Assembly (NCBI RefSeq): GCF_000015565.1
Contig: NC_008786.1
Coordinates: forward strand, 2,666,001 to 2,730,000
DNA: 64,000 bases
Source of the DNA: Verminephrobacter eiseniae EF01-2
GTDB taxonomy: Bacteria; Pseudomonadota; Gammaproteobacteria; Burkholderiales; Burkholderiaceae_C
Direction of reading: 5' to 3'
Shown here: positions 3,701 through 60,023 of the stretch, piece after piece
Position numbering within the stretch: the first letter of the stretch is position 1
Layout: each line of letters begins with the position of its first letter
Position numbers and translations under genes: made by a program
The notes under the pieces: generated by a model
What the model saw: only the letters and a program-made list of their open reading frames with translations
What the model was told of the DNA's origin: nothing
The model's database searches: none

Positions 3701-5154
3701 TCACGCCGGCCCGCCCCGGCGCGGCCAGCGGCTTTGGCTGGGCGGCAGATGCGCCGCTGGCCGGCAGCCTGCGCGCGCGGCTGCCCGACATCGGGCTGTG
3801 GTCGATCCTGGCGCCGCCCGGCTGGCGCGTGCGCGGCACACTCGACGCCAGCGCCACCCTGTCGGGCACGCGCAATGCGCCGCGCTGGGTGGGCACGCTG
3901 GGGGCCGATGAACTGGCGCTGCGATCGGTGCTCGATGGCGTCGACCTGCAAGGCGGGCGCCTGCGCGCCACGCTGCGCGGCAATCGACTGGACATCACCG
4001 AACTGCGTTTGCAGGGCGGGCGCGGCAGCAGCGCGCGCATCGCGGGCATGAGCGGCAACCGCACGGCAGCACCGCAGGACGGCGGCACACTCACCGGCAC
4101 CGGCCGCATCAGCTGGGGTGACAGCCAGGCGGCAACCGATGGCCTGTCGGGCATTGCCATGTCGTTGCAGGCCGAGGCCAAGGGCTTGCAGGTGCAGGTG
4201 CGGGCCGACCGCCAAATCAGTGTGTCGGGCCGGTTGCAGGCCCTGCTGCAGCAGGGGCAGATCAGCCTGCGCGGCCAACTGCGCACCGACCGCGCCACCA
4301 TCATCCTGCCCGACGAATCGGCACCCCGCCTGGGCGCGGACGTGGTTCTGCGCTCTGCCGCCAAAGGGCGCCAGGACCAGGCCAGCGCCGCCACCCGGGC
4401 TGGCCAGCCCGCCGCCCGGGCGCAAACCGCCAAGCCGCCCGAGATCGCCATCAGCCTCGATCTGGGGCGCGACTTTGCGCTGCAAGGCCAGGGCATCACC
4501 ACCCGGCTGACGGGGGCGCTGAACATCCACAGCAGCACCGAGCCGGGCGCTGCGCCGCGCGTGACCGGCGAACTGCGCACCGAACAAGGCCGCTACCGCG
4601 CCTGGGGCCAGGTGCTGGATGTCGAGGTCGGCCTGATCCGCTTCAACGGCCCCTACGACAACCCATCGCTCGACATCCTGGCGCTGCGCCCGAACATCAG
4701 CGTGCGCGCGGGCGTGCAAATCACCGGCAGCGCCCAGGCGCCGCGCGTCAAGCTCTACGCCGACCCCGAGTTGCCCGACGCAGAGACGCTGTCCTGGGTG
4801 CTGCTGGGCCGCGACCCATCCGCTGGCGGCGCCGAAGCCGCGATGCTGCAACAAGCCGCCCTGGCCCTGCTGGGCCGCAAGGGCAACGGCAGCACCGTCG
4901 CCGACGCCGCCAGCCGCCTGGGTCTGGACGAAATCGGTTTTCGCGGCCCGGCCGCAGGTGAAGACGCCAGCGCGGCAGCCCTGACCTTCGGCAAGCGGCT
5001 GAGCCGGGATTTGTATGTGACCTACGAGCACAGCCTGTCGGGCACACTGGGCACGCTGTACATCTTCTACGACCTCTCGCGCCGCCTCACACTGCGCGGG
5101 CAGACCGGCGCGAAGAGCGCGCTGGACATCATCTACACCATCCGGTACGACTAA
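793..5154 (+). CDS. tamB: TamB, inner-membrane anchored translocation and assembly module protein
   Basis: About 1453 residues, close to the size of other TamB/YtfN (DUF490) proteins. The ATG at 793 overlaps the tamA stop; the frame is open further upstream but that stretch overlaps tamA and is not TamB-like. Near the N-terminus there is one hydrophobic anchor (LLRAGLALLLAAGVLLW), then a very long Ala/Gln/Leu-rich region of beta-strand periodicity, and a conserved C-terminal domain (YDNPSLDILALRP, then SALDIIYTIRYD at the end). TamB spans the periplasm as a beta-taco lipid conduit that partners TamA. Two in-frame tandem repeats (2320-2382, 2949-3020) lie in the middle of the protein. The TAA stop is supplied by the first bases of the repeat element that follows directly. 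Confidence 0.9.
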   Translation: MRSATPTPRARAADSGAAAPRRPLRAPPVLRALGGLLRAGLALLLAAGVLLWHWAGSDTSLASALSQAAHYLPAGQRLESRAVSGSLRSGGRIGWLRWSSPDLALEVTELRLGWRLAPLLQRRLELSELHAARVQITPVATGAEPAPLAPPTQWLLPLQIDLPFRIDQLHWAGAPAVAARGLEGDYRFDGREHRLNIGAVELAQGRYSARATLQAQAPMALDVTLDGHVSGAARALAPDGAGLDLPPGGTPAVPGSAPTLSLGAQATLQGTLATAAAQLQLRARLRPLASAEARPARPAPPGAKPQRQTTTPATPAQAEIQATLAPWAPQPLRSASAALRAVNLAALWPQAPATQLHGRLTAGPVPGQAARWSIQAQLRNTLAGPWDRGRLPVSALQASVSYDGSRWSMPGATIEFGAGSATAQGQYLPATGALQGQAILRALRPDALHSLLAAAPLSGHVDAQMQGPTLRFDADIRAAPAASTDDSTPLRINRLSARGSWQTPSAAPTGAGLRLDGAGLRSGGASLRLEHLLLDALQARIEATDLRVAPGAQSAEGQFTLTMPGASVQAQGQIAPRNGAGELQLHWSDTERHQRWLTSLPWVGAGLQRALQDTAQIKGAAQVSARWKGGWQTLAQQLQAASAGTALPGSQPTFELQATLSSAQLDLAWPSPVGTGSAAAAGQAMPMQSLQLRAVQAELSGSLAQARLALAAQMRTPGVQAPLQTGLQAHPQADLQAPLQASLQTQLSAGLVAAGQWQLQIGELRLQAQDSRRPGPWTLQLSAPLGMTVRSTARAHGLAVETSAGQARLTGPLPGAVALRWQPLHWSMAADSALRLQTRGTLQGLPLAWVDALGPGQTAAATGPSVLARMGLDSDMLLDGQWSVDSGDTLRARASLRRASGDLRIQWGDALDAIGTPAKTATASTATNGSAAGVRQAEISIEANGDRLRADLLWDSERAGAIDASLSTRFTPARPGAASGFGWAADAPLAGSLRARLPDIGLWSILAPPGWRVRGTLDASATLSGTRNAPRWVGTLGADELALRSVLDGVDLQGGRLRATLRGNRLDITELRLQGGRGSSARIAGMSGNRTAAPQDGGTLTGTGRISWGDSQAATDGLSGIAMSLQAEAKGLQVQVRADRQISVSGRLQALLQQGQISLRGQLRTDRATIILPDESAPRLGADVVLRSAAKGRQDQASAATRAGQPAARAQTAKPPEIAISLDLGRDFALQGQGITTRLTGALNIHSSTEPGAAPRVTGELRTEQGRYRAWGQVLDVEVGLIRFNGPYDNPSLDILALRPNISVRAGVQITGSAQAPRVKLYADPELPDAETLSWVLLGRDPSAGGAEAAMLQQAALALLGRKGNGSTVADAASRLGLDEIGFRGPAAGEDASAAALTFGKRLSRDLYVTYEHSLSGTLGTLYIFYDLSRRLTLRGQTGAKSALDIIYTIRYD
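2320..2382 (+). repeat. In-frame 21-bp tandem repeat, three units, in tamB
   Basis: Three consecutive 21-bp units each beginning GGCGCC(G/A)GCCTGCGG encode GAGLRLD, GAGLRSG and GASLRLE. The unit is a multiple of three, so copy-number change keeps the frame. Confidence 0.85.
2949..3020 (+). repeat. In-frame 24-bp tandem repeat, three units, in tamB
   Basis: Three diverged 24-bp units beginning GCAGGC and ending CTT encode an eight-residue period of the form QAPLQTGL, QAHPQADL, QAPLQASL. It suits the repetitive beta-groove fold of TamB, where one or two strands could be added without breaking the protein. Confidence 0.8.
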
Positions 5155-5317
5155 TGTCGCGTCACGGATCAGATGTCGTAGGCTGTGCGCAGCCATCGGA
5201 GCGCAGCGCAAGGCGCAGCGCGCAGCCCATACCGAGCTGTATTGGCAAGCGATGCAACGCCGCGATGCGCTTCGATGGCCAGCGCAGACCGACAGATGAT
5301 CGGTGACGCGACGCTAG
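5151..5317 (+). repeat. Palindromic repeat element, copy 1 (tandem with copy 2)
   Basis: About 166 bp, almost entirely one imperfect inverted repeat. The left end reads CTAATGTCGCGTCACGG and the right end GGTGACGCGACGCTAG, so CTAG is altered to CTAA on the left. The left arm carries GTAGGCTGTGCGCAGCC, a GTAG-plus-hairpin motif with one change from the other copies. The left boundary provides the tamB stop codon. It shares its terminal CTAG with copy 2. Confidence 0.85.
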
Positions 5318-5479
5318 TGTCGTGTCACCGATCAGATGTCGTAGGCTGCGCGCAGCCATCGGAGCGCAGCGCAAGGCGCATCGCGCAGCCAATACCGAGC
5401 GTATTGGCAAGCGATGCAACGCCGCGATGCGCTTCGATGGCCAGCGCAGACCGACAGATGATCGGTGACGCGACACTAG
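5314..5479 (+). repeat. Palindromic repeat element, copy 2
   Basis: 166 bp in the same orientation as copy 1 and joined to it by a shared CTAG. Ends are CTAGTGTCGTGTCACCGATC and GATCGGTGACGCGACACTAG. The left arm carries GTAGGCTGCGCGCAGCC. It lies about 180 bp before recQ. Confidence 0.88.
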
Positions 5480-5614
5480 CCCGGTGCAATCGCCAACCGG
5501 CCCCCTGGCAGCGCACAATATGCGCCTTTGCCGGCAGTTGGCCTGCGCTGCGCCCGGCCCACCCCATCTCAGCCCACTCCACTCACGGCCTGGTATGAAA
5601 CCGACATGCAGCGC

Positions 5615-5642
5615 TTGATTCATACGCGCCGTTTGCTATCAA
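5615..5642 (+). promoter_or_regulatory. Possible recQ promoter
   Basis: TTGATT at 5615 and TATCAA at 5637 are separated by 16 bp, a plausible sigma-70 pair 17 bp before the TTG start of recQ. The leader would be very short. The stretch GCGCTTGATTCAT to GCTATCAAAAA also resembles a degenerate copy of a short dispersed repeat I associate with Comamonadaceae intergenic DNA, so it may not be a promoter. Confidence 0.3.
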
Positions 5643-5658
5643 AAAGAGAGTTATCAAG

Positions 5659-7527
<1,869 letters not shown>

Positions 7528-7553
7528 GCCTCGGGGCCGACAGCGTGCGCCGT

Positions 7554-7667
7554 CACCACGCCCACCGGCATGGTGTGCCCCGCACCGGACTGGACCGCCG
7601 CGTCGGCCGCCAGGGCATTGGAGGCCCCGGGGCGGCGCTCCACCGCCGCTCTCGGCCACCGCTTGCC
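7554..7667 (-). pseudogene. Remnant of a Bug/TctC-type periplasmic receptor
   Basis: On the minus strand, one frame reads AAVERRPGASNALAADAAV, then GHTMPVGVVTAHAVGP. This matches the start of mature Bug (tripartite tricarboxylate transporter) receptors, where VVENRPGAxGNIAAD is followed by PDGYTLLxG and THAINP. No intact reading frame continues in either direction, and the recQ 3' end cuts the remainder. It is read as a decayed fragment of a family that is greatly expanded in Burkholderiales. The match rests on my recall of the family consensus. Confidence 0.45.
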
Positions 7668-8000
7668 TGAGTGACGAAGCCAGGCGCTCGGCCGCGGCGC
7701 GCTATCGCGGCGCCGCTGCCATCCGGGGCGCAACCCATCCGCAGACACAAACCAAGGGCAGGGGGCCTGTGGACGAGGGCTGGTCGGCCCCGTCGGCCCC
7801 GTCGGCCCAGTCGGCCCCGTCGGCGTGTTGCGCCCGTGCGCCGCAGGCCCGATGGGCTGCGGCCAGGGCATGTCGTCTTTGCCCGGTGGTCTTTTGCATG
7901 GGTTTGGTCAGGCAACGGATGGCAGGCGCGGCGGGGGCTTTCCGTGGTGCCGAGACCTTTGTGTGCGATTGGAAAAATAATCGATATGCAATCAATGAAG
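7668..8000. other. Intergenic stretch between recQ/Bug remnant and the FAD dehydrogenase
   Basis: No convincing gene. It contains a 9-bp tandem repeat (7783-7823), and from about 7970 turns noticeably AT-rich, as expected for the promoter region of the downstream cluster. Confidence 0.5.
7783..7823. repeat. 9-bp tandem repeat GTCGGCCCC
   Basis: Four units of GTCGGCCC(C/A) plus a partial fifth. It lies in non-coding DNA; read through on the minus strand it would encode repeated Gly-Pro-Thr. Confidence 0.8.
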
Positions 8001-8017
8001 ATTGTTGAAAGAACAAT
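8001..8017. promoter_or_regulatory. Inverted repeat upstream of the FAD dehydrogenase cluster (possible operator)
   Basis: ATTGTT-GAAAG-AACAAT is a perfect 6-bp inverted repeat with a 5-bp spacer, about 60 bp before the ATG at 8077 and in the only AT-rich stretch nearby. It would suit an operator for the IclR-type regulator encoded at the end of this cluster. There is no direct evidence for that pairing. Confidence 0.35.
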
Positions 8018-8076
8018 GTCAATTTCATGACGATCAATATACAATCCGTTCCTCGTTCACGAAAGCGGATCGATCG

Positions 8077-9567
8077 ATGTCCTTGGTCGCGCAGCTCCAA
8101 ACAGCGCTTGGCGCACAGGCGGTTCTGGTTTCCGAAGCCGAGGTCGCTGGCTACCTGCAAGACTGGCGCGGCCGGTACGGTGGGCCTGCGGCCTGTGTCG
8201 TGCTGCCGTCTTGCACGCAGCAGGTTGCCGCAGCCGTGCGCATCGCTGGCCGGTTGCGGGTTCCGGTGCTGGCACAAGGCGGCAATACCAGCCTGTCTGG
8301 CGGCTCGGTGCCATGGCCGGACGGTGCGGCGCCGATGCTCATCAACCTGGCGCGCATGCGTGCCGTGCGCGCCATCGACACGGCCAACGATTCGATGGTG
8401 GTGGAAGCCGGCTGCGTGCTGGCGGCGGTGCAGCAGGCGGCCAGCGAACGACGGCGGTTGTACCCGGTCAGTCTGGGGGCCGAGGGGTCTTGCCAGATCG
8501 GCGGCAATATCGCCACCAACGCCGGGGGCACCGGGGTGTTGCGCTACGGCAATACGCGCGAGAACGTCCTGGGGCTGGAGGTGGTGTTGCCTGACGGGCA
8601 GATCTGGGATGGCCTGTACCGGCTGCGCAAGAACAATACCGGCCTGGACCTCAAGCATCTGTTCATAGGCTCCGAGGGCACCTTGGGCGTCATCACGGCG
8701 GCCTGCCTGAAGTTGCACCCATTGCCGACGGCGCAGGCGGTGGCATGGATGGCCGTGCCCAATCCGGCGGCTGCGCTCGACATGCTGGCGCTTTTTCAAA
8801 GGCGCTGCGGCGCCAGCCTGTCGGCGTTCGAGATGATGAACGGGCCGCAGCTCGACTATGTGCTCGAACATGTGCCGGGCCGGCGCGCGCCACTGCCTGC
8901 CAGCTACGCCTGGCATGTGTTGGTCGAGTTGGCGGACTCTGGCGCAGAGCCGGCATTGACCGGCGCGCTGCAAGAAACGCTGCAGCAAGGTCTGGCCCAA
9001 GGCTGGGTGCTGGACGCAAGCCTGGCCGCCAGCGGCCCGCAGCGCGCGGCGCTCTGGGCCTTGCGGCACAGCGTGTCGCAAGCCAACAAGCAGGCCGGCA
9101 TCGGCCTGAGCACCGATTGCGCGCTGCCGGTGTCCGCCGTTCCTGAATTCATCGAGCGCGCCACCTTGGCCGTGCACCGGGTCATGCCCGGGCTGCCGAT
9201 CATCATCGTGGCCCACCTGGGGGATGGCAATGTCCACTTCATTCCTTTGATCCCCTTTGCCGGCTTCGGGCCATGGAGCGCCGTTGCCGACCGGCAGGCC
9301 ACGGCATCTGCCGCATCTGCCGTCAGGCAGGCGGTCCACGCGGTGGCCCATGCGCTGAGCGGCAGTTTCAGCGCCGAGCACGGCATAGGCCAGTTGCTCA
9401 CGCAAGAGATGGCGCGCTTCAAGCCTGCGGTTGAGCTCGCGATGATGCGTGGCATCAAAGGGCTGCTCGACCCGCAGCAACTGTTCAACCCGGGCCGGCT
9501 CTTTCCGGCCGTTGCCACTACCCGGACCAGCGCCGGAACTGACGTCGAGGGGACTTCAGATGAATGA
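8077..9567 (+). CDS. FAD-linked 2-hydroxyacid dehydrogenase (GlcD/D-2-hydroxyglutarate dehydrogenase family)
   Basis: 496 residues. The N-terminal FAD_binding_4 (PCMH) domain shows AQGGNTSLSGGSVP and GSEGTLGVI, and the C-terminal FAD-oxidase domain carries HLGDGNVHF and AEHGIG, the metal-binding and substrate motifs of the D-lactate/glycolate/D-2-hydroxyglutarate dehydrogenase group. It should oxidise a 2-hydroxyacid, passing electrons to a carrier; the substrate is not deducible. The ATG at 8077 is preferred over an upstream frame extension running into the AT-rich promoter region. Its stop overlaps the start of the ABC binding protein by 8 bp, so it leads a transport-plus-catabolism operon. 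Confidence 0.85.
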   Translation: MSLVAQLQTALGAQAVLVSEAEVAGYLQDWRGRYGGPAACVVLPSCTQQVAAAVRIAGRLRVPVLAQGGNTSLSGGSVPWPDGAAPMLINLARMRAVRAIDTANDSMVVEAGCVLAAVQQAASERRRLYPVSLGAEGSCQIGGNIATNAGGTGVLRYGNTRENVLGLEVVLPDGQIWDGLYRLRKNNTGLDLKHLFIGSEGTLGVITAACLKLHPLPTAQAVAWMAVPNPAAALDMLALFQRRCGASLSAFEMMNGPQLDYVLEHVPGRRAPLPASYAWHVLVELADSGAEPALTGALQETLQQGLAQGWVLDASLAASGPQRAALWALRHSVSQANKQAGIGLSTDCALPVSAVPEFIERATLAVHRVMPGLPIIIVAHLGDGNVHFIPLIPFAGFGPWSAVADRQATASAASAVRQAVHAVAHALSGSFSAEHGIGQLLTQEMARFKPAVELAMMRGIKGLLDPQQLFNPGRLFPAVATTRTSAGTDVEGTSDE

Positions 9568-10645
9568 CCAGGCCCGCAACAACCCTTCCCGCCGGCGCGC
9601 GCTCAAGGTCGCGGCAACCGGCGTTGGCACGTGCGCCGCTGCGGCATGGCTGCGATACGCGCGCGCCCAGTCCAGGCGCATCGTCATACGCGACGATGGC
9701 GGCGTCTACAACAGGGCGTACAACGCCGTGTTCTATAAGCCGTTCACGGAAAAGACCGGCATCGAATGCCTGGGCGCACAGGCCAACGCCGAGCCGATCG
9801 CCCAGATCCGCAGCATGGTCGAGACGAAGAACTACACCTGGGACATGGCCAAGATCAGCCAGCCCGCGATCTTGCTGCTCACGCAAGGGGGCAAGGTGTA
9901 TCTGGACAAGCACCAACTGGAAAACGACCCCGCAGTGCGCAGCATCCCCGCGCATTTCATGTCGCCCTATGGCGTCGGCGCCAATGTCTATAGCACCGTG
10001 CTGGCGTACCGGACCGATGCCTTCAAGGGCCGCAAGGCGCCCAACTCCTGGGCCGACTTCTGGAACCTGAAGGATTTTCCCGGCCGCCGGGCCTTGCGCA
10101 AGCACCCGTTCGACACGCTCGAGGAGGCATCGATGGCCGCAGGCGTGCCGGCCGCATCGCTGTATCCGCTGGACATCGATCGAGCGCTGGCCCATTTGGA
10201 CAAGATCAAACCCGGCATCGATGTCTGGTGGAATTCCGGCGCGCAGGTCGAGCAGATGCTCAAGTCGGGCGAGGTCGACATGCTCGCCACCTGGGTCTCG
10301 CGTCCGCAAAGCGCGATCGCCGACGGCGCGCCGGTGGCGATCGTCTGGAACCAGAACCTGTGGGGTCTGGACAGTTGGGCCATCCTGGCGGGAACGCCCC
10401 AGGCCCAGGCCTGCCGCGAGTTCATCAAGTTCAGTTCCGACCCGAAACGCATGGCCGCGCTGACCGGGTATTTGCCGGCCGGCGTGACCCAGCCCGAGGC
10501 TTTCAGGTACATCAGGGCCGATGTCGCCAGGAACTGCCCGAGCCACGCCGACAACATCGGCAATGGGGTGCAGATCAACGCCAGATACTGGCTCGACAAC
10601 CAGGCGGCGGTGACCGAGCGGTTCAACGCCTGGATCTTGCAGTGA
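9560..10645 (+). CDS. ABC transporter periplasmic substrate-binding protein, spermidine/putrescine type
   Basis: 361 residues. The N-terminus carries a twin-arginine-like signal (PSRRRALKVAATGVG) ending near ARAQS, so the protein is exported, probably folded, by Tat. The mature part looks like a PotD-type extracellular binding protein (DDGGVYNRAYNAVFYKPF, GVGANVYSTVLAYR, IDVWWNSGAQVEQMLKSGEVDM). It precedes a matching ATPase and permease with only 28 bp to the ATPase gene. Ligands of this family include polyamines, small carboxylates and metal complexes. The FAD dehydrogenase and DapA-family lyase next to it suggest an organic acid or amino-acid derivative rather than a polyamine, but that is inference. 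Confidence 0.82.
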   Translation: MNDQARNNPSRRRALKVAATGVGTCAAAAWLRYARAQSRRIVIRDDGGVYNRAYNAVFYKPFTEKTGIECLGAQANAEPIAQIRSMVETKNYTWDMAKISQPAILLLTQGGKVYLDKHQLENDPAVRSIPAHFMSPYGVGANVYSTVLAYRTDAFKGRKAPNSWADFWNLKDFPGRRALRKHPFDTLEEASMAAGVPAASLYPLDIDRALAHLDKIKPGIDVWWNSGAQVEQMLKSGEVDMLATWVSRPQSAIADGAPVAIVWNQNLWGLDSWAILAGTPQAQACREFIKFSSDPKRMAALTGYLPAGVTQPEAFRYIRADVARNCPSHADNIGNGVQINARYWLDNQAAVTERFNAWILQ

Positions 10646-10673
10646 CGGCCGCAGCGGGCAGCAGGACGTTGGC

Positions 10674-11777: not shown

Positions 11778-11780
11778 GCG

Positions 11781-42082: not shown

Positions 42083-42778
42083 ATGGCCCGTCTGCCGCGT
42101 CTGACCCTGCCGGGTTATTTGCACCATGTGATGCAAAGGGGCAACAACCGGCAGCCCCTGTTCGTGGATGGGGAAGATTTCCGGGCGCTGCTTGCGTTGC
42201 TGGCGGACAACGCCCCACGATGTGGGGTCGCCGTCCATGCCTATGTGCTGATGGCCAACCATTTCCACCTGCTGCTCACCCCGGGCACGCAGGACGGCTT
42301 GCCGCAGCTGATGCAGGCCCTGGGGCGGCGCTATGTGCAGTATTTCAATCGCCGCCACGCGCGCACCGGCACCTTGTGGGAGGGGCGTTACCGCTCGACC
42401 CTGTTGCAGGCCGAGCGCTATCTGCTGCCTTGCATGGTGTACATGGATCTGAACCCCGTCAGGGCCGCGCTGGTGGCGCAGGCCGCCGACTACCCCTGGT
42501 CGAGCCATGCCCATTGGCGCGGTTTGCGCAACGACCGGCTGCTCACGCCCCATGCGCTGTACTGGGCGCTGGGCAATACGCCGTTCGCCCGCGAGGCGGC
42601 TTATGCGGCCCTGGTGCAGGCGGGTGTCGGAGCGCAGGAGCAGGCGGCGTTGACGGCTTCGGCGCTGAGCGGTTGGGCCTTGGGCGAGGCGGCATTCATC
42701 GGCGATTTGCAAAAACGGACACCGCGCCGCGTCGCACCAGGGCGGTCGGGGCGGCCGCGCACAGCGTCAGGCACCTGA
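42083..42778 (+). CDS. REP-associated tyrosine transposase (RAYT, IS200-like Y1 family)
   Basis: 231 residues from the ATG at 42083, whose opening MARLPRLTLPGYLHHVMQRGNNRQ is the usual start for this family; an ATG eight codons upstream is possible. The HUH metal motif is in AYVLMANHFHLLLTP and the candidate catalytic tyrosine is in CMVYMDLNPVRA. RAYTs are single-copy, domesticated relatives of IS200/IS605 transposases that act on REP palindromes carrying a GTAG foot. No IS ends flank it. One of five palindromic repeats in this window lies 143 bp downstream, making it the leading candidate to handle that family. Confidence 0.88.
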   Translation: MARLPRLTLPGYLHHVMQRGNNRQPLFVDGEDFRALLALLADNAPRCGVAVHAYVLMANHFHLLLTPGTQDGLPQLMQALGRRYVQYFNRRHARTGTLWEGRYRSTLLQAERYLLPCMVYMDLNPVRAALVAQAADYPWSSHAHWRGLRNDRLLTPHALYWALGNTPFAREAAYAALVQAGVGAQEQAALTASALSGWALGEAAFIGDLQKRTPRRVAPGRSGRPRTASGT

Positions 42779-42920: not shown

Positions 42921-43086
42921 CTAGTGTCGCGTCATCGATCATCTGTCGGTCTGCGCTGGCCATCGAAGCGCATCGCGGCGTTGCATCGCTTGCCAATACA
43001 CTCGGTATGGGCTGCGCGATGCGCCTTGCGCTACGCTCCGATGGCTGCGCGCAGCCTACGACATCTGACCGGTGACGCGACACTAG
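42921..43086 (-). repeat. Palindromic repeat element, copy 3 (inverted)
   Basis: 166 bp, opposite orientation to the other four copies. It starts CTAGTGTCGCGTCATCGATC and ends CCGGTGACGCGACACTAG. The GTAG-hairpin arm is at the right side, read on the minus strand. It occupies most of the gltB leader and ends 42 bp before the gltB ATG. Confidence 0.9.
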
Positions 43087-52557: not shown

Positions 52558-52568
52558 AGGCCAAAACC

Positions 52569-53255: not shown

Positions 53256-53264
53256 TCCCGCGCC

Positions 53265-53534
53265 ATGCTGGCATTGCCCCCCGAACTCACCCAGCGCCAG
53301 GCCACGGCCTGCCTGCGCCTGCTGCTGCAAGGGCTGAAGGCGCAGCCAGAGCGCGCCGTGCGGGTCGATGCCAAGGCCCTGACGCGGTTTGACAGCACGG
53401 CCCTGGCGGTGCTGCTCGAATGCCGGCGCGCAGCGCTGTCCGAAGGCAGGGGCTTTGCGGTGCAAGACCTGCCGCTGGCGCTGGCGGGCATGGCGCGGCT
53501 TTACGGCGTGGATGGGTTGCTCACGGGCGGGTAG
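53265..53534 (+). CDS. mlaB: MlaB, STAS-domain subunit of the phospholipid transport system
   Basis: 89 residues forming a single STAS domain. The block VRVDAKALTRFDSTALAVLLECRRAA includes the conserved D-S-T at the helix start. MlaB binds MlaF and is needed for complex activity. It is the last gene of mlaFEDACB, 9 bp after mlaC. Confidence 0.88.
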   Translation: MLALPPELTQRQATACLRLLLQGLKAQPERAVRVDAKALTRFDSTALAVLLECRRAALSEGRGFAVQDLPLALAGMARLYGVDGLLTGG

Positions 53535-53581
53535 TTGCCGCTGCTCCGCCTTGCAGATACGCCAAGCCCCGGCGCGTGCGC

Positions 53582-53627
53582 CATATGGCGGGAACATGGC
53601 GGGACATGGCGGAAACATGACGGGAAA
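53582..53627. repeat. Degenerate tandem repeat CATGGCGGGA downstream of mlaB
   Basis: Four diverged 10-13 bp units (CATATGGCGGGAA, CATGGCGGGA, CATGGCGGAAA, CATGACGGGAAA) in non-coding DNA. Confidence 0.7.
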
Positions 53628-53714
53628 GTGGCCGCGCAAATCCGAACAGCGCGATCGGGTGGCAATCCCGGGCGTGTGGCGGGGCCGAGGAAGGTCTGGC
53701 CCCAAGAGTTTTCG

Positions 53715-53850
53715 ATGCCCAACAAGTCAGCGCACCGCACGCGGTGTACCCACAGCCTGGCGTTCAAGACGCAGGCAGACCCTGGCCACCTTGCGCGGCG
53801 ATCGCACGATGGCCGATGTGTGCAAGGGGTCCGGTCTGCACGCCGGCTAG
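53715..53850 (+). pseudogene. IS3-family OrfA remnant, frameshifted and cut by a palindromic repeat
   Basis: An ATG at 53715 opens MPNKSAHRTRCTHSLAFKTQA, and the next frame continues TLATLRGDRTMADVCKGSGLHAG. Joined, LAFKTQATLATLRGDRTMADV aligns without gaps to the start of IS3-type OrfA (FKARVALEALRGDKTLAEL, then GVHPNQI). One extra base near 53780 explains the shift. The sequence stops at the CTAG of repeat copy 4, whose TAG closes the frame. No OrfB or IS end is visible. Confidence 0.6.
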
Positions 53851-54011
53851 TGTCGCGTCACCGATCAGATGTCGTAGGCTGCGCGCAGCCATCGGAGCGC
53901 AGCGCAAGGCGCATCGCTTGCCAATACCGAGCGTATTGGCAAGCGATGCAACGCCGCGATGCGCTTCGATGGCCAGCGCGGACCGACAGATGATCGGTGA
54001 CGCGACACTAG
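53847..54011 (+). repeat. Palindromic repeat element, copy 4 (most symmetrical)
   Basis: 165 bp with CTAG at both ends. The centre is a perfect 17-bp stem (GCATCGCTTGCCAATAC and its complement) with loop CGAGC; outer arms pair over about 80 bp with few mismatches. The left arm carries GTAGGCTGCGCGCAGCC. It cuts off the IS3 OrfA remnant. Confidence 0.92.
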
Positions 54012-54062
54012 GTCATCGAACGCAAACGCCAGTGGCGCCATCGCGGTTTTGGCTCTGCCGGC

Positions 54063-54890
54063 TCAGGGCTCCCCATGCCCGTTCCCTCGATGGCCGTTCT
54101 TGCGGCGTGCGAGTTCGGCCACCTGCACGGCGATCTGCTCGGCTTGCTCTTTCATCTGTGCGACCACCACGGGCACGCGCTCAGCCGGCAGTCGCTCGGT
54201 GATGGTCGCGCTGGCCAGCCCGGCGACGGTGCGGCCGTCCGCCATGCGCACCGGCACGGCCACCGCGCGCGAGCCGGGCACCACGCCGACCGGCGCGTAG
54301 GCATATCCCTGCGCGCGCGTGCGCAGCGCGCGTTCGAGCAGTTCGGCCGGATCGATGTGCAGCGCCTGCAGCCGACGCGCATTGCGCCGCACCACCTCCG
54401 CTGCTTCTTCGGGCTGCAGTGAGGCGAGCAGTACCAGGCCACTCACGCCCACGCCAAGCGGGCGCCGCGCGCCGATCTCGATCGACAACACCTTCACCGA
54501 AAAGCTGCCCGGGCGGCGGTCGATGCATACCGAATCGACCCCGTTGCGGATGGTCAGGAAGGTGGTGTCGCCGAGGCTCTCGCTCAGGTGGCGCAGGTGC
54601 GGCTCGGCGATGGCGCGGATCGGAAAGCGTGCCGAGCGCGCCAGCCCCAGCAGGGAGACTTCGCCGCCGATCAGGTAGCGGCGCGTGGCCAGGTCCTGCT
54701 CGACCGCGCTTTCTTCCACCAGCACGCGCAGGATGCGGTGCACCGTCGGGCGGTTCAGGCCCGTATGGGCCGCGACATCGGTCAGGCGCACGCCGCGCTC
54801 CTGGCCGGTGGCGAGCACGCGCAGCACGGCCAGCGCGCGGCGCACGCTTTGCGCGCCGGCGGTGGCGGCGTCCTTATCCGTCGCAGCCAT
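54063..54890 (-). CDS. IclR-family transcriptional regulator
   Basis: 275 residues. The winged helix (SVRRALAVLRVLATG, LTDVAAHTGLNRPTVHRILRVL) precedes the IclR effector domain (LGDTTFLTIRNGVDSVCIDR, RPLGVGVSGLVLLASL). The C-terminus is Lys/Arg/His rich. It overlaps the flavin-reductase gene by 17 bp and is transcribed away from the Bug-receptor operon, which it probably controls through the shared intergenic region at 55.4-55.6 kb. Confidence 0.9.
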   Translation of the reverse strand: MAATDKDAATAGAQSVRRALAVLRVLATGQERGVRLTDVAAHTGLNRPTVHRILRVLVEESAVEQDLATRRYLIGGEVSLLGLARSARFPIRAIAEPHLRHLSESLGDTTFLTIRNGVDSVCIDRRPGSFSVKVLSIEIGARRPLGVGVSGLVLLASLQPEEAAEVVRRNARRLQALHIDPAELLERALRTRAQGYAYAPVGVVPGSRAVAVPVRMADGRTVAGLASATITERLPAERVPVVVAQMKEQAEQIAVQVAELARRKNGHRGNGHGEP

Positions 54891-55410
54891 TCATCACCGC
54901 CTGGGGCGTTTGCGGCATGCCGCGCAGCGTGACGATCTCGCCCAGCGCCGTGTAGTTCGGCCCGCCGTGCGGCAGACCGGATTCAGCGTGCGCCAGGCCG
55001 TCGCGCAAGTGGAAGGCCATGACCGCGCCGACGATGAACTCGGCGCCAGTCTGGCCGAAGGCGCTCACGCGCTCGAGCCTGCATTCCATGCTCAGCGGCG
55101 CATCGGCCAGGCGCGGCACGCGCACTGTGCGGCAAGGCCGTGTGCCGAGGCCGAGCAGTTCGGTCTCGCGCACGCCGGACGCATGCCCGGCGCTGCTGTC
55201 GTGGATGGCGCGCATCTGCGGGGCATCGCCGATGTTCACGCCCGGCAGCGGTGGTTTGTTCGACACGAAGGTGACGCAGGAGAACGGGGCGAGGTGGATC
55301 ACACCGTCTGCGGACACCGTGGTGATCCAGGCGATCGGGCGCGGCACGACGCTGCCGCTCGACAGGCGGTAGCTGGCTTCGGGCGACAGGGCGCCGGCAT
55401 CGAGAAACAT
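54874..55410 (-). CDS. Flavin reductase-like (FMN-binding split barrel) protein, internally shortened
   Basis: 178 residues from the ATG at 55410. SGSVVPRPIAWITTVSADGVIHLAPFS and FVSNKPPLPGVNIG match the FMN-binding split-barrel family, and ELLGLGTRPCRTVRVPRLADAPLSMECRLER matches its second half. About 30 residues that normally follow VNIG (the block with KDTxRNI and FVVN) are missing, and the sequence jumps to DAPQMRAIHDSSAG. The frame is maintained, so the protein may be folded but altered, or a recent inactivation. Usual role is supplying reduced flavin or acting as a small oxidoreductase. Confidence 0.75.
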   Translation of the reverse strand: MFLDAGALSPEASYRLSSGSVVPRPIAWITTVSADGVIHLAPFSCVTFVSNKPPLPGVNIGDAPQMRAIHDSSAGHASGVRETELLGLGTRPCRTVRVPRLADAPLSMECRLERVSAFGQTGAEFIVGAVMAFHLRDGLAHAESGLPHGGPNYTALGEIVTLRGMPQTPQAVMNGCDG

Positions 55411-55486
55411 GGGAGTGCCTACCGTGGTGGCGGAGCCTCGATTGTCGGCAGCGCTGCGGCGGTGCTGAACGGACACTTCCCGCAAT

Positions 55487-55504
55487 CGTCCACCATATGG
55501 AACA
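55487..55504. promoter_or_regulatory. Candidate IclR-type operator in the divergent intergenic region
   Basis: GTCCACCATATGGAACAG is centred on the palindrome CCATATGG (55493-55500). It resembles TGTTCCATATGGAACA-like sites used by IclR-family regulators, with one half better than the other, and lies between the flavin-reductase/iclR pair and the divergent Bug-receptor operon. Confidence 0.45.
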
Positions 55505-55613
55505 GGCGGGATTTATTGCTTTGCAGCATTCGATGCGTGCTCCTTAGAGTGGACGGGTCGCCGATCAAACCGCAGCCCATTTGCGGTGCCGGCGCCGGAG
55601 CAGGAGAGTCGCT

Positions 55614-56588
55614 GTGAGCAATGCCGTCGCCCCTTTTGCCGTCGCTGCGTGCGTGGCGCTTGCCGCATGGCCCGCCATGGCGCAGGACCACTGGCCCGAC
55701 AAGCCTGTCAAGCTCGTATTGCCCTACCCGCCGGGTGGCAACGTCGATGGCGCTGCGCGCATCATCGCCGAGCAGTTGCAGGCTGTGTTCATGCAGCCTT
55801 TCATCATCGACAACCGGCCCGGTGCCGGCGGCATGATCGCCGGCGCGGCGGTTGCCACGTCCGTGCCTGACGGCTACACCTTCTTCATGGGCGCGAACGG
55901 GCCGATCCTGTTCGCGCCAACCGTTTTCAAGCGCAACGTCTACGACTGGAAGAAGGACTTCGCGCCGGTCAGTTCCGTGTCATTCACGCCGCTGGTGTTG
56001 CAGGTGCATCCGTCCACGCCATACAAAACCGTGGCAGACCTGTTCGCCGAGGGCAAGAAGCCCGGCAACACGCTGACCATGGCCTCGCCCGGCGCCGGCA
56101 CGCAAAACCACTTGGTCAGCGAGTATCTGCAGCGCGCAAGCGGTGCCCGCTGGACCACGGTGCACTACAAGGGCAACGCGCCCGCCACCACGGACCTGCT
56201 GGGCGGCCAGGTGCAGTTCAACTTCGACCAGATATCGGTGGCCGGCCCCTTCATCGCGCAGGGCCGCAGCCGCGCGCTGGCCGTGACATCGCCCAAGCGC
56301 CTGCCGCAATGGCCCGATGTGCCGACGCTTCAGGAAGCCGGTTTCAAGGACTTCAGCCCCGAGACTTTCACCGGCATCCTGGCGCCGCGCGCCACACCGC
56401 CGGCGATCGTTGAGCGCTTGTCGCAGGCGCTGCAGAAAATCCTCGCCGACAAGGCCGTGCAGGCCAGGTTCGAGACGCTTGGCGCGCAGGCCCGCGGCAG
56501 TTCACCCGGGCAGTTCACCGAGTTTCTGACGCAGGAAGACGCGCGGTGGATGCCGGTCATCGAGCAAGCCAACATCCACGCCGAATGA
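55614..56588 (+). CDS. Bug/TctC-family tripartite tricarboxylate transporter receptor
   Basis: 324 residues from a GTG with AGGAGAG five bases upstream. Signal peptide AVAACVALAAWPAMAQ is followed by the Bug mature pattern: WPDKPVKLVLPYPPGGNVDGAARI, FIIDNRPGAGGMIAGAAVA, PDGYTFFMG, and PDVPTLQEAGFKDF near the C-terminus. It binds a small carboxylate or aromatic acid in the periplasm. No TctA/TctB membrane genes are next to it, common for the expanded Bug set of Burkholderiales. First gene of a five-gene catabolic operon. Confidence 0.93.
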   Translation: MSNAVAPFAVAACVALAAWPAMAQDHWPDKPVKLVLPYPPGGNVDGAARIIAEQLQAVFMQPFIIDNRPGAGGMIAGAAVATSVPDGYTFFMGANGPILFAPTVFKRNVYDWKKDFAPVSSVSFTPLVLQVHPSTPYKTVADLFAEGKKPGNTLTMASPGAGTQNHLVSEYLQRASGARWTTVHYKGNAPATTDLLGGQVQFNFDQISVAGPFIAQGRSRALAVTSPKRLPQWPDVPTLQEAGFKDFSPETFTGILAPRATPPAIVERLSQALQKILADKAVQARFETLGAQARGSSPGQFTEFLTQEDARWMPVIEQANIHAE

Positions 56589-57007
56589 ACACCGTCACCA
56601 CGACCCTCGGGCGCGCCGCGCCCGCCGCGCGCACCAGCGTGTACGTCGCCGGCTTTGGCCACAAGAACCCGATCCCGGCGGGCTGCCGCGTCGGCCCGCT
56701 GCTGGAAAGCGGCAGCATCCAGGGCAACGACCCCGCCACCGGCCGGCCGGCCGAGACCATCGAGGCACAGTGCCGCTTCATGCTCGACAACGTGCGCCGC
56801 ATCGTCGAGGCGGCCGGCGGCGGCACGCAGGACATCGTGAAAATCACCGTCTGGATGAAGGATCGACGCCAGCGCCCGGCGCTCAACGTGCCGTGGCTCG
56901 AGATGTTCCCCGATGCCGCAGCGCGGCCCGCGCGCCACGCGATCATCGCGCCCGAGCTCGACATGGGCCGGCTGATCGAGTGCAGCTTCACGGCCTGGAT
57001 CGCCTGA
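56585..57007 (+). CDS. RidA/YjgF-family protein
   Basis: 140 residues from the ATG that overlaps the receptor stop. TIEAQCRFMLDNVRRIVEAAGGGTQDIVKITVWMKD and the arginine in ARPARHAI match the RidA/YjgF/Rid family, which hydrolyses reactive enamine/imine intermediates or, in catabolic operons, acts on specific aminoacrylate-like or ring-opened compounds. Its operon placement suggests a pathway-specific Rid protein. Confidence 0.82.
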   Translation: MNTVTTTLGRAAPAARTSVYVAGFGHKNPIPAGCRVGPLLESGSIQGNDPATGRPAETIEAQCRFMLDNVRRIVEAAGGGTQDIVKITVWMKDRRQRPALNVPWLEMFPDAAARPARHAIIAPELDMGRLIECSFTAWIA

Positions 57008-57039
57008 TTCGACGTTTCTCCGACCGCCCCACGACCCCC

Positions 57040-57927
57040 ATGCCCGACTACCTTGCCTTCGACCCCCATCCGCGAGCGCCGGTGCCGCTGCCGCCCGCGC
57101 TCGCGTGCGACAGCCAGTTCCATGTGTTCGGCCCGCGCGAGCAGTACCCCGTGCGCCCCGACGCCGCCTACGAAATGCCGAGCGCCACCTGGCAGGTGGC
57201 GCAAAAGCTCCACGCCACGCTCGGCATCGGGCGCGGCGTGATCGTCCAGGCCACCACCTATGGCGCCGACCACGCAGTGGTGCTCGATGCGCTGGAGGGC
57301 CTGAACGCCGGCGGCCCGCGCCGCTACATGGCCTGCGCCAACGCCGTGGTGCTGACAGAGCGCGACGACGCCTATATCCAGAAACTGCACGACGCCGGCG
57401 TGCGCGGCGCGCGCTTGACGCGTGGCAGCCTGGGCATCCGCCTGAGCGCGGCCGGGCAGGAACGCATCTTCGCCCGCGTCAAGGAGCTCGGCTGGTACCT
57501 GAAGGTGCAGCCCGAGCCGACCGGCATCGCCGGGCAACTCCCGGCCATCGAGTCCCTGGACATGCCGGTGCTGATCGACCACATGGGCCGCGCCGACCCG
57601 GCGCGCGGCGCTGCCGACCCGAGCCTGGCGCGCATCCTGGAACTGTTCGGGCGCGGCAACTTCTGGGTGATGCTGTCGCTGTCCGAGAAGCTCTCGAAGA
57701 TCGGCGCGCCGTGGGACGACGTGGTGCCGCTCGCGCAGCGCCTGATCGACATCGCGCCCGACCGTTGCGTGTGGGCCAGCGACTGGCCGCACCCGGTATC
57801 GGTCCAACAGCCGCCCAACGAGGGCGCATTGCTCGAACTGCTCTATCGCTTCGCCCCCGACGCCGCCACGCGGCAGAAGATCCTTGTCGACAACCCCGCC
57901 CGCCTCTTTGGATTCGACAGCGCATGA
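57040..57927 (+). CDS. Amidohydrolase_2 family (LigI-like 2-pyrone-4,6-dicarboxylate lactonase relative)
   Basis: 295 residues. DSQFHVFGPREQYPVRPDAAYEMPSA at the N-terminus, LIDHMGRADP in the centre and VWASDWPHPV near the C-terminus match the metal-light TIM-barrel hydrolases related to LigI. They open lactone or ring-derived dicarboxylates. The first metal-type motif reads DSQFHVF, with only the second His of the usual HxH, as in LigI-type enzymes with weak metal sites. It overlaps the FAH-family gene by 4 bp. Confidence 0.82.
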   Translation: MPDYLAFDPHPRAPVPLPPALACDSQFHVFGPREQYPVRPDAAYEMPSATWQVAQKLHATLGIGRGVIVQATTYGADHAVVLDALEGLNAGGPRRYMACANAVVLTERDDAYIQKLHDAGVRGARLTRGSLGIRLSAAGQERIFARVKELGWYLKVQPEPTGIAGQLPAIESLDMPVLIDHMGRADPARGAADPSLARILELFGRGNFWVMLSLSEKLSKIGAPWDDVVPLAQRLIDIAPDRCVWASDWPHPVSVQQPPNEGALLELLYRFAPDAATRQKILVDNPARLFGFDSA

Positions 57928-58799
57928 AACTCATCAGCTACCTCCACGGCGGGGCCTCGCACTGGGGCTGCGTCATCGGCGACGGCGTCGTCGATCTCGG
58001 CCGCCGCCTGCCGGCCTGCGCGTGCGTCGCGGCATTGCTCGAAGGCGGCGACGCCGCGCTCGCGCAGGCGCGCCAGGCCGCAGAGGGCGCCGCGCCCGAC
58101 CATGCGCTGGCCGATGTGCGGTTCCAGACGCCCATCGCGCGGCCACGCCGCGTGTTCTGCATCGGCGTGAACTACGCGCACCGCAACGCCGAATACAAGG
58201 ACGGCAGCGATTCGCCCAAGTACCCGAGCATCTTCATGCGCGTGGCCGAGTCCTTCGTCGGCCACGGCGAGCCGTTGCAGCAGCCGCTCGAATCGACACA
58301 GCTCGACTACGAGGGCGAGATCGCCATCGTCATCGGCCAGCGCGCGCGCCGCGTGCAGGCAGACGACGCGCTGGCCTGCATCGCCGGAATCACCTGCATG
58401 AACGAAGGCACCGTCCGCGACTGGACGCACCACGCCAAGTTCAACGTGACGCAGGGCAAGAACTGGAATGCGTCCGGCGCCATCGGCCCGTGGATCGTCA
58501 CGGCCGACGAATTTCCGCAGGGCTATGGCGCGCTGCGCGTGCGCACGCATGTCAATGGCGAACTGCGGCAGGACGACAGCAGCGCGAACCTGATGTTCGG
58601 CTTCGCCTGCCTCGTCAACTACCTCTCGACCTTCACCACGCTGGCGCCGGGCGACATCATCGCCACCGGCACGCCGATCGGCGCGGGCATCCGCTTCGAT
58701 CCGCCGAAGTTCCTGCGGCCGGGCGATGTGGTCGAGATCGAAGTCAGCGGCGTGGGCGTGCTGCGCAACGTCGTGAAGGCCGAAGAGGTGGCGCCATGA
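57924..58799 (+). CDS. Fumarylacetoacetate hydrolase family protein
   Basis: 291 residues. The catalytic FAH domain occupies the C-terminal two-thirds, with VFCIGVNYAHRNAEYK, metal ligands in LDYEGEIAIVIG, GITCMNEGTVRDWTHHAKFN, and IIATGTPIGAGI. Relatives hydrolyse 2,4-dioxo acids or decarboxylate/isomerise aromatic ring-fission products. Coupling to an upstream LigI-like hydrolase and a downstream HpaH-like hydratase suggests a meta-cleavage-type lower pathway. Confidence 0.88.
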   Translation: MKLISYLHGGASHWGCVIGDGVVDLGRRLPACACVAALLEGGDAALAQARQAAEGAAPDHALADVRFQTPIARPRRVFCIGVNYAHRNAEYKDGSDSPKYPSIFMRVAESFVGHGEPLQQPLESTQLDYEGEIAIVIGQRARRVQADDALACIAGITCMNEGTVRDWTHHAKFNVTQGKNWNASGAIGPWIVTADEFPQGYGALRVRTHVNGELRQDDSSANLMFGFACLVNYLSTFTTLAPGDIIATGTPIGAGIRFDPPKFLRPGDVVEIEVSGVGVLRNVVKAEEVAP

Positions 58800-58866
58800 A
58801 ACGACATCCTGTGTTAGCCCGGTGTTTTTGCTTGCCTGCGGCCTCGACCGGCAGGAGGGTAGTCCG

Positions 58867-59679
58867 GTGAGCCTGGACCAGAACACCCTCGCCCAGGCCG
58901 CCGAGCGGTTGCAGCAGGCGCAGCGCACGCGCCTGGCCTGCCGCCAGTTCTCGCTCGACTACCCGGAGATGACGATCGACGACGCCTACGCGATCCAGCA
59001 CGCCTGGATGCAGCTCGAGCTGCGCAATGGCCGCACGATAAAAGGCCACAAGATTGGCCTCACGTCGAAGGCGATGCAGCGCGCGGTGAACATCGCCGAG
59101 CCGGACTACGGCACGCTGCTGGACGACATGTTCTACCGCGACGGCGCGGTGATCGAGTCGGAGCGCTTCCTGCAGTTGAAGATCGAGGCCGAACTGGCCT
59201 TCGTGCTCGCCAAGCCGCTGGCTGGCCCCGACTGCACGCTGTTCGACGTGCTCGACGCCACCGCGTACATCACGCCCGCGCTGGAGATCCTCGACGCGCG
59301 CATCGAGCGCATCGACCCGCAAACCAGGCGCATGCGCACCGTGCTCGACACCATCTCCGATAACGCGGCCAACGCCGCCTTGGTGCTGGGGGGACGCCCG
59401 TTCAGGCCGGCGGTGTCGGACGCCGACATGCGACGCATCGGCGCCATCGTCAGCCGCAACGGCGAGGTCGAAGAAACCGGCCTGGCCGCCGGGGTGCTCA
59501 ATCACCCCGGCTATGGCGTGGCGTGGCTCGCCAATCGGCTGCATCGTTTTGGCGTGACCTTGCAGCCCAGGCAGGTCATCCTGGCGGGCTCGTTCATCCG
59601 GCCCATCGAGGTTGTCAAGGGCGATACGGTGGTGGCCGACTACGGCGAGTTCGGCACCGTTTCTTGCCACTTCGGATGA
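58867..59679 (+). CDS. hpaH: 2-oxo-hept-4-ene-1,7-dioate / 2-keto-4-pentenoate hydratase family protein
   Basis: 270 residues from a GTG with AGGAGGG 7 bases upstream; an upstream frame extension to 58822 is less likely. LDYPEMTIDDAYAIQHAWMQLELRNGRTIKGHKIGLTSKAM and ITPALEILDARI match HpaH/HpcG-type hydratases (267 residues in E. coli). It hydrates a 2-hydroxydienoate made from a ring-fission product. It closes the operon. The symbol is by family; the true substrate could differ. Confidence 0.8.
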   Translation: MSLDQNTLAQAAERLQQAQRTRLACRQFSLDYPEMTIDDAYAIQHAWMQLELRNGRTIKGHKIGLTSKAMQRAVNIAEPDYGTLLDDMFYRDGAVIESERFLQLKIEAELAFVLAKPLAGPDCTLFDVLDATAYITPALEILDARIERIDPQTRRMRTVLDTISDNAANAALVLGGRPFRPAVSDADMRRIGAIVSRNGEVEETGLAAGVLNHPGYGVAWLANRLHRFGVTLQPRQVILAGSFIRPIEVVKGDTVVADYGEFGTVSCHFG

Positions 59680-59715
59680 ACGACGCGCATGTCCTCCCCC
59701 CTCATTTCCGGCGCG

Positions 59716-59832
59716 CACCCGGGCCGGGGGAATCACTTGGCGCGGTGCGGCCAAGAGCACCGGCGCGAGCGCGTTGCGGGTCTCGGGGTGGTTGACGGTG
59801 GCGGCCAGGGCAAGGACTTGGTCGACGCACAT
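59716..59832 (-). pseudogene. Enoyl-CoA hydratase N-terminal remnant
   Basis: On the minus strand this stretch reads VLALAATVNHPETRNALAP then VLLAAPRQVI, close to the enoyl-CoA hydratase opening (VALITLNRPExRNALSPELLAALRQAI). No start codon or downstream domain remains, and repeat copy 5 lies 25 bp beyond its upstream end. It is judged a decayed fragment; the resemblance is short. Confidence 0.35.
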
Positions 59833-59856
59833 CGCACACGGCGCGTAGCGCCGACC

Positions 59857-60023
59857 CTGGTGTCGCGTCACCGATCAGATGTCGTAGGCTGCGCGCAGCC
59901 ATCGGAGCGCAGCGCAAGGCGCATCGCGCAGCCCATACCGAGCTGTATTGGCAAGCGATGCAACGCCGCGATGCGCTTCGATGGCCAGCGCAGACCGACA
60001 GATGATCGGTGACGCGACACTAG
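59857..60023 (+). repeat. Palindromic repeat element, copy 5
   Basis: 167 bp, plus orientation. The left end is CTGGTGTCGCGTCACCGATC (CTGG in place of CTAG) and the right end GATCGGTGACGCGACACTAG. The GTAGGCTGCGCGCAGCC motif is intact. It lies between the HpaH-like gene and the eroded acyl-CoA synthetase. Confidence 0.9.

What the first reader, a model, noticed from the sequence alone, without database searches (positions are those of the whole stretch)
5151..60023. A five-copy family of about 166-bp near-perfect palindromes, with a RAYT transposase in the same window
Copies at 5151, 5314, 42921 (inverted), 53847 and 59857 have the same length and the same ends (CTAG-TGTCGCGTCACC ... GGTGACGCGACA-CTAG). 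Each copy folds into one long hairpin of about 80-bp arms. Inside one arm is GTAGGCTGCGCGCAGCC (one change in copy 1), that is, a GTAG foot followed by a perfect GC-rich hairpin. RAYT enzymes are known to recognise REP palindromes with a 5' GTAG foot, and an intact RAYT gene lies at 42083, 143 bp from one copy. The family could be a BIME-like unit spread by this RAYT, or a MITE spread by an IS absent from the window. Five copies in 64 kb suggests hundreds genome-wide.
Basis: partly seen in the sequence, partly recalled or inferred. Interest (0 to 1): 0.75.

Follow-up and report, generated by a model that had tools for sequence, protein, structure and literature searches.

The report
Palindromic mobile repeat inserted at CTAG
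A 160-base palindromic piece of DNA has been copied hundreds of times into the rare CTAG sites of one bacterium's genome, most likely by a cut-and-paste transposase rather than by the RAYT gene beside one copy, and its central hairpin turns up inside other repeats of many related bacteria.

Summary
The five copies are real and the genome holds about 320 (324 forward and 322 reverse ends). They do not look like RAYT-driven REP/BIME units: an ortholog of the RAYT-like gene is in 33 of 35 congeners, whose best match to the element is E 9e-23 against 4.6e-82 here, and in four relatives the same RAYT-gltB locus is an empty site. The element behaves like a MITE of the IS630/Tc1-mariner kind: 160 bp, terminal inverted repeats, insertion at TA inside CTAG, mostly between genes (10 of 138 copies in ORFs, 436 of 733 control points). 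All 7 CTAGs of the window are element edges. No autonomous IS with its ends was found, so the IS630 link rests on target and context. It is probably VeiPR1, a palindromic repeat reported from Verminephrobacter eiseniae (PMC3975124), whose sequence I could not see. The more novel result: its central hairpin, which covaries, recurs in repeats with different ends in 78 of 150 family and 44 of 185 class genomes, own genome included.

The parts
5151..5317 (+). copy 1 (body 5155-5313, 159 bp) with flanking CTAA/CTAG; the right CTAG is shared with copy 2 (tandem insertion); its left TA plus the next base form the stop codon of the TamB gene
5314..5479 (+). copy 2 (body 5318-5475, 158 bp), reference copy; with TA as target duplication the element is 5317-5476 (G...C, 160 bp), TA at 5315-5316 and 5477-5478
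42921..43086 (-). copy 3 (body 42925-43082), inverted, between the RAYT-like gene and gltB; empty in four relatives
53847..54011 (+). copy 4 (body 53851-54007), between mlaC (ends 53255) and an iclR-type gene on the other strand (54063-54890)
59857..60023 (+). copy 5 (body 59861-60019), left flank CTGG, right flank CTAG
5318..5333 (+). left terminal inverted repeat of copy 2 (TGTCGYGTCAYCGATC in the family); right counterpart at 5460-5475
5371..5425 (+). central hairpin core (GCAAGGCGC ... GCAACGCCGC) of copy 2, shared with repeats of other genera that carry different ends

Best explanation
The family is a MITE: a non-autonomous 160-bp cut-and-paste element whose terminal inverted repeats (TGTCGCGTCACCGATC...) were recognised in trans by a DDE transposase of the IS630/Tc1-mariner kind, which inserts it at the TA of CTAG and duplicates the TA. 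It multiplied to about 320 copies in this lineage and was kept mainly where it does not break genes. SHOWN: copy number, shape, ends, CTAG target, an empty site in relatives, intergenic bias, independence from the RAYT-like gene's presence. INFERRED: that the duplication is TA and not CTAG, that the enzyme is of the IS630 kind, that the partner was lost or is not in the data held, and that the palindrome plays no essential host role.
For: Flanks are CTAG on both sides in 89 of 143 full-length copies. Of 95 copies with TA intact on both sides, 6 have unequal 4-mers: 5 differ at the outermost base on one side only, as a 2-bp TA duplication predicts, and 1 at the inner base; no TA-intact copy shows the matched non-CTAG pair that a 4-bp duplication would give. 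Four relatives have the empty site ...CAC-TA-ATCTCCCACTCCCTGCG (L063; L064, L068, L070 alike) against ...TAC-TA-[element]-TA-GCCTTGCACCCCCTGCG here, with the same number of bases (17) after TA. The genome carries IS630-family groups lying in CTAG in the same register, among them 7 of 8 copies of one group; element copies sit in the CTAG at the edge of such ISs in L106 and L109. IS630 is reported to prefer TA in 5'-CTAG-3' (Tenzen and Ohtsubo 1991, title seen in the reference list of PMC2170065). Tandem copies share one CTAG. 10 of 138 copies lie inside a composition-supported ORF against 436 of 733 control points.
Against: No IS with these ends was found. A search for the 12-base end followed by non-canonical sequence gave 12 places in the genome: most are diverged or shortened element copies, L053 and L055 are lone ends, and L052 is an end joined to a 128-bp internal piece of an IS630-family gene, a rearranged junction, not an IS with that end. 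Of 45 IS630-family matches in the genome, the 30 fetched as loci are not bounded by the element's ends. One IS630-like group (two-ORF, 8 copies, L116-L123) shows no consistent CTAG flank. 48 of 143 copies have lost TA on at least one side, more change than the body shows; two of these have matched pairs (CTCG/CTCG and CCAG/CCAG) that fit duplication of a non-TA target under either a 2-bp or a 4-bp model. I read the rest as decay of CTAG, which is depleted here (7 seen, 37.6 expected), but this was not proved.
Confidence: 0.78

Rival explanations
1. A MITE of another CTAG-targeting DDE family (IS5-, IS481- or IS701-like, recalled) that duplicates the whole CTAG (4 bp).
For: CTAG on both sides in 89 of 143 copies fits a 4-bp duplication too, as do the two matched non-CTAG pairs (CTCG/CTCG, CCAG/CCAG). 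IS481-family ISs and relics exist in the genome, with an end TGTCGCATCCC that resembles the first bases. MITEPsy1 of Pseudomonas syringae inserts at CTAG or YTAA with duplication and is linked to ISPsy2 (PMC3189936, passages).
Against: Among copies with intact TA the non-CTAG cases are one-sided, 5 of 6 at the outermost base, and none is a matched pair. The two IS481-family copies read (L071, L073) are not flanked by CTAG and diverge from the element after the first bases.
Confidence: 0.15
2. A REP/BIME-type unit mobilised by the RAYT-like gene at 42083.
For: A GTAG foot and local hairpin are exact in 126 of 143 copies; a RAYT-like gene lies 143 bp away; the protein hits NCBIfam REP_Tyr_transpos at 74.8 bits, just under its cut-off of 80.
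Against: RAYT orthologs in 33 of 35 congeners that show no comparable element; empty site beside the RAYT gene in four relatives; duplicated target; 160 bp with long terminal inverted repeats; foot and hairpin not conserved in the homolog of G410.
Confidence: 0.03
3. A host-maintained structural repeat (terminator or nucleoid site) whose copies are kept alike by gene conversion rather than by transposition.
For: Strong hairpin and intergenic placement.
Against: Clean insertion against four relatives, insertion beside IS ends and in tandem at one CTAG, true copies in this genome and one genome of another genus only among 399 family genomes searched for the exact end.
Confidence: 0.04

Closest known systems
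VeiPR1 of Verminephrobacter eiseniae (Pinel 2009, not seen; cited in PMC3975124, section 10 read)
   Same: No other repeat in 415 kb of held own sequence comes near it in number (that sample was chosen largely for element copies).
   Different: The review gives 2.3% of the genome and 'unique to V. eiseniae'; I estimate 0.9-1.3% and find a homolog in another genus (G410). Identity is likely, not shown.
RUP of Streptococcus pneumoniae (IS630-Spn1-linked MITE; PMC2229807, passages)
   Same: Short, about 100 copies, TA-containing target, intergenic, also inserted at ISs.
   Different: RUP shares its ends with an IS630 of the same genome; here no such IS was found. RUP is 107 bp; this is 160 bp, palindromic over its whole length, with a shared core hairpin.
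MITEPsy1 of Pseudomonas syringae (PMC3189936, passages)
   Same: MITE that inserts at CTAG.
   Different: 100 bp, ends like ISPsy2, 4-nt duplication; ends unlike these.
YPAL/RU-2 of Yersinia (PMC2229807, passages)
   Same: About 168-bp palindromic repeat.
   Different: No TA at the termini, variable 3-26 bp duplications.
GTAG-tagged REPs and RAYTs (PMC2817692, PMC3733652, passages)
   Same: One arm holds a GTAG foot and hairpin; a RAYT-like gene is nearby.
   Different: REPs are 20-40 bp; here long terminal inverted repeats, target duplication and no link with RAYT presence.
Beta-proteobacterial repeat element, BRE (PMC3110155, section 14 read)
   Same: Repeat of betaproteobacteria including Comamonadaceae.
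   Different: About 90 bp and only 1 copy reported in V. eiseniae; its letters could not be read here, so relation to the core is untested.

Membership tests
MITE (any DDE family) | short, terminal inverted repeats, multicopy | tested here: met
   157-159 bp bodies, 16-base ends, about 320 copies
MITE (any DDE family) | insertion with short target duplication, empty sites in relatives | tested here: met
   empty site in four relatives; CTAG both sides in 89 of 143
IS630-type MITE | TA target duplication, CTAG preference | tested here: met
   5 of 6 unequal TA-intact flank pairs differ at the outer base, 0 matched non-CTAG pairs among 95; a small sample, and two TA-less copies have matched pairs
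IS630-type MITE | ends shared with an autonomous IS630 element | tested here: not met
   none seen in own genome, nor in the 23 IS630-family matches of G074, G410 and G135, with none in G034; hence not filed as a proven member, only as working like one
IS630-type MITE | mobilised in trans by an IS630 transposase | not testable with these tools
   needs a transposition assay
REP/BIME/REPIN mobilised by RAYT | presence follows the RAYT gene | tested here: not met
   33 of 35 congeners with RAYT ortholog, best element match among them E 9e-23 against 4.6e-82 here
REP/BIME/REPIN mobilised by RAYT | GTAG foot followed by a hairpin, conserved | tested here: inconclusive
   exact in 126 of 143 own copies but lost in the G410 homolog
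REP/BIME/REPIN mobilised by RAYT | 20-40 bp unit (PMC3733652 abstract) without target duplication (recalled) | tested here: not met
   160 bp, target duplicated
VeiPR1 | same sequence as VeiPR1 | not testable with these tools
   thesis not held; the name occurs in 1 held paper
VeiPR1 | 2.3% of the genome | tested here: inconclusive
   0.9% from end counts, 1.25% from the window
BRE | about 90 bp, 1 copy in V. eiseniae | tested here: inconclusive
   the core is present in about 320 copies here, which argues against identity; BRE letters not seen
Rfam RNA family | match at gathering score | tested here: not met
   only a tRNA in the window; in four loci of other genera the core gets at best a sub-threshold mir-1269 hit (34.7 bits, cut-off 100)

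The most novel reading that the evidence does not exclude
The core hairpin is a transferable module. Across a class of proteobacteria, miniature elements with different terminal repeats, many of them flanked by TA or CTAG, carry the same covarying hairpin (GCAAGGCGC...GCAACGCCGC), sometimes as an inverted pair. The core would then be selected for helping the element itself (host-factor binding, hairpin-dependent replication or excision), while the ends are exchanged to follow whatever transposase is at hand.
Probability: 0.3. Interest if true: 0.75.

Novelty: new member of a known kind. Interest (0 to 1): 0.5.

Why it matters
It removes a tempting RAYT link and replaces it with a testable cut-and-paste explanation for what is probably the dominant repeat of an earthworm symbiont genome described as actively rearranging (PMC3975124, section 10). 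About 320 closely similar 160-bp palindromes are substrates for recombination and hairpin-induced deletion. More broadly, a hairpin conserved inside miniature elements with different ends would be a handle on an open question: whether the inside of a MITE matters, or only its ends.

Tried and rejected
RAYT/BIME reading: rejected on distribution, empty site and target duplication. IS481 partner: the two copies read have an end TGTCGCATCCC and no CTAG flank; the closeness of IS481 relics to some copies (L005, L093) was read as insertion nearby. Autonomous partner by ends: 12 non-canonical ends, of which ORFs were listed for L052, L053 and L055 only and all but L053 and L055 compared with the IS loci by BLAST; IS630-family matches of other genomes have no such end nearby; in G516, G509 and G466 a different end (CTAGTACTCTTTC) gave only short pairs or singles; plasmids gave nothing above chance, though the core matches a Comamonas plasmid; one viral contig hit is a lone end judged chance, a stricter viral scan gave none. 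Single end hits in G160 and G392 were judged chance. A count of which dinucleotide flanks inverted repeats around cores was dropped because positions inside palindromes satisfy it for any palindromic dinucleotide (GC 32, TA 25, CG 22, AT 15 of 58 loci); the version that looks at the outer edge only gave TA in the outer four bases of 13 of 45 inverted repeats (14 of 59 loci gave no repeat). BRE identity could not be tested. Literature: searches listed no paper that I recognised as describing the shared core, but I read listings and a few passages only, and only open-licence papers are held, so absence is weak.
Full report
WHAT IS THERE. The window (G000:C2:2666001-2730000 of a 5.60-Mb, two-contig genome) holds five copies of one palindromic element; a profile search at E <= 1e-3 finds no further degenerate ones. 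Bodies are 157-159 bp; with TA as the duplicated target the element is 160 bp (copy 2), beginning G-TGTCG and ending CGACA-C. Copies 1 and 2 are tandem and share one CTAG. Copy 2 folds at -120.8 kcal/mol, z -14.65, but copies match the reverse complement of copy 2 at only 74-77%.

COPY NUMBER. Ends within two mismatches occur 324 times forward and 322 times reverse, against 6 and 2 for the reversed control pattern, so about 320 copies, 0.9% of the genome; the window alone would give 1.25%. From 762,703 bases of own-genome loci (overlaps included, chosen mostly because they hold copies) I extracted 151 distinct copies, 143 of them 155-159 bp. Of the 143, 116 differ from the consensus at 0-4 positions and 27 at 5-18. 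The other eight are deletion or other length derivatives of 36-171 bp. Two solo ends (L053, L055) look like remnants, and in L052 an end is joined to a 128-bp internal piece of the L114-type IS630-family gene.

TARGET. Flanks are CTAG on both sides in 89 of 143. T and A are each changed in 6-17% of flanks, mostly to C or G, while the outer C/G and inner G/C are changed in 0.7-3.5%; copies with changed flanks are also more diverged inside (mean 4.1 against 2.4 differences, p = 8e-5), which fits decay after insertion. Where TA is intact on both sides (95 copies), 89 have equal 4-mers and 6 do not; 5 of the 6 differ at the outer base on one side. This favours a TA duplication over a CTAG duplication, on few cases. 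Among the 48 copies without TA on both sides, one has CTCG/CTCG and one CCAG/CCAG, which fit duplication of a non-TA target under either model. CTAG is scarce: in the window all 7 occurrences are element edges, with 37.6 expected from trinucleotides; in 350,981 bases of other own stretches 140 are edges and 26 are not (biased towards copies). In 87,597 bases of relatives' loci, also not a random sample, there are 37.

EMPTY SITE AND RAYT. Four relatives (L063, L064, L068, L070) have the RAYT-like gene followed by gltB and an uninterrupted site whose sequence continues in register after TA; of nine relative loci fetched, eight have gltB next to the RAYT-like gene, but for four of these I printed the other side and L062 has no gltB match. 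The RAYT-like gene is found in 33 of 35 congeners (62-85% identity for the best matches), the exceptions being G018 and G025. In the search of 60 genomes with copy 2, 30 had some match; among the 35 congeners the best E-value was 9e-23 (G034, 152 of 166 positions at 76%) and the next 9.8e-12, the listed matches of the others covering the core only; the match list was cut and at most 14 candidates per genome were scored. An exact search for CTAG plus the end in 399 family genomes found 157 + 153 places here, 2 + 1 in G410 of another genus, and one each in G160 and G392. The G410 copies are homologs; that genome appears to be the MAG SZAS CTRL-40 LIN-147.

CONTEXT. With flanks rejoined, 10 of 138 copies lie in an ORF with coding-type GC, against 436 of 733 control points (control points come from the same loci, and the ORF test is a composition test, not annotation). 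Copy 1 supplies the stop codon of a TamB gene whose domain is complete.

WHO MOVES IT. The genome has several IS630-family groups in CTAG: one group in 7 of 8 copies, another with a 358-362 aa protein, L101, and L114/L128. Element copies sit in the CTAG at the edge of such ISs in L106 and L109. Against this, one two-ORF IS630-like group has no consistent CTAG, and no IS was found that shares the element's ends: 12 non-canonical ends in the genome, none bounding a transposase gene in what was examined; 45 IS630-family matches, of which 30 loci were examined. An IS with ends identical to the element's over more than 16 bases could still hide among the canonical ends, outside the loci examined. 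I therefore say it works like an IS630-type MITE and do not file it as a proven one.

THE CORE. Positions 58-112 of the 166-bp query match repeats of other genomes. In one such family, about 300 bp and seen in many congeners, the ends are AGAACCTGTTCA...; L042 of another family has arms AGTGGACTGTAACAGCC. An 18-sequence alignment of cores, chosen by me from BLAST-found loci plus one own variant and the G410 copy, gives 19 pairs, 9 with compensatory change, 95.9% of cells paired, 0 of 500 shuffles as high, and slid structures far lower. Caveats: related sequences can exceed such shuffles, and DNA hairpins can be kept matched by template-switch correction, so covariation does not prove an RNA. 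The model from it finds matches at E <= 1e-4 in 78 of 150 family genomes (74 of 141 genera) and 44 of 185 class genomes (43 of 177 genera), own genome included in both; E-values are rough and filters strict, so counts are approximate, and no shuffled-genome control was run. In loci read the cores sit in hairpins with many different ends, several flanked by CTAG or TA on both sides (L237, L239, L247, L248, L277, L279, L282), some with two inverted cores. TA lies in the outer four bases in 13 of 45 detected inverted repeats, TA being 1.4% of dinucleotides, so 32 of 45 do not show it. No Rfam match at gathering score to the core.

WHAT IS KNOWN. The contig sizes match V. eiseniae EF01-2 as I recall it; a review states that about 2.3% of that genome is one palindromic repeat, VeiPR1, unique to the species (PMC3975124, section 10; original thesis not seen). 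This element is the most frequent repeat in the held sequence, so it is most likely VeiPR1, though my share of the genome is lower and a homolog exists elsewhere. RUP, MITEPsy1, YPAL and GTAG REPs differ as listed. BRE (PMC3110155, section 14) has one reported copy in V. eiseniae, which argues against its being this core.

VERDICT. Real and abundant; RAYT reading not supported; MITE reading supported, most likely of the IS630 kind; probably already noticed as a repeat, with its target and relatives worked out here; the shared core is the part worth pursuing.

Noticed in passing
window 42083-42778: RAYT-like gene (Pfam Y1_Tnp; NCBIfam REP_Tyr_transpos just below cut-off) with an ortholog in 33 of 35 congeners, next to gltB in 8 of 9 relative loci fetched: looks vertically inherited, perhaps domesticated.
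   Followed up: partly
window 5152-5154: Insertion of copy 1 provides the stop codon of a 1530-aa TamB gene; the TamB domain runs to residue 1529.
   Followed up: partly
L272, L273, L275, L276, L277, L280, L282 (other families of the class): Elements of about 260 bp with two inverted core hairpins and ends such as CTAGTACTCTTTCAAGG or CTAGTGTCCTGTCAC; for the first of these ends no partner IS was seen in three genomes.
   Followed up: partly
L052 3634-3773: An element end directly joined to a 128-bp internal piece, 100% identical, of the L114-type IS630-family gene: a rearranged junction.
   Followed up: partly
held own-genome loci (415 kb): A second, minor repeat, CGGTATGAGCGCCTTCGGGCGGCC, whose 16-mers occur up to 9 times.
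   Followed up: no
L145 1393-1452, L161 1354-1413, L114 about 2300-2370: A different palindrome in the same genome with the same core edges (GCAAGGCGCAAATC...GATTTGCAACGCCGC), beside copies of the main element.
   Followed up: no
L309 (part of G000:C1, 31,194 bp): Part of the plasmid contig is 84% identical to a conjugative plasmid of Xylella taiwanensis.
   Followed up: no
L051 2361, L060 3005, L142, L213: Short derivatives (36-78 bp) that keep both ends but have lost the middle, as expected from hairpin-driven deletion.
   Followed up: no
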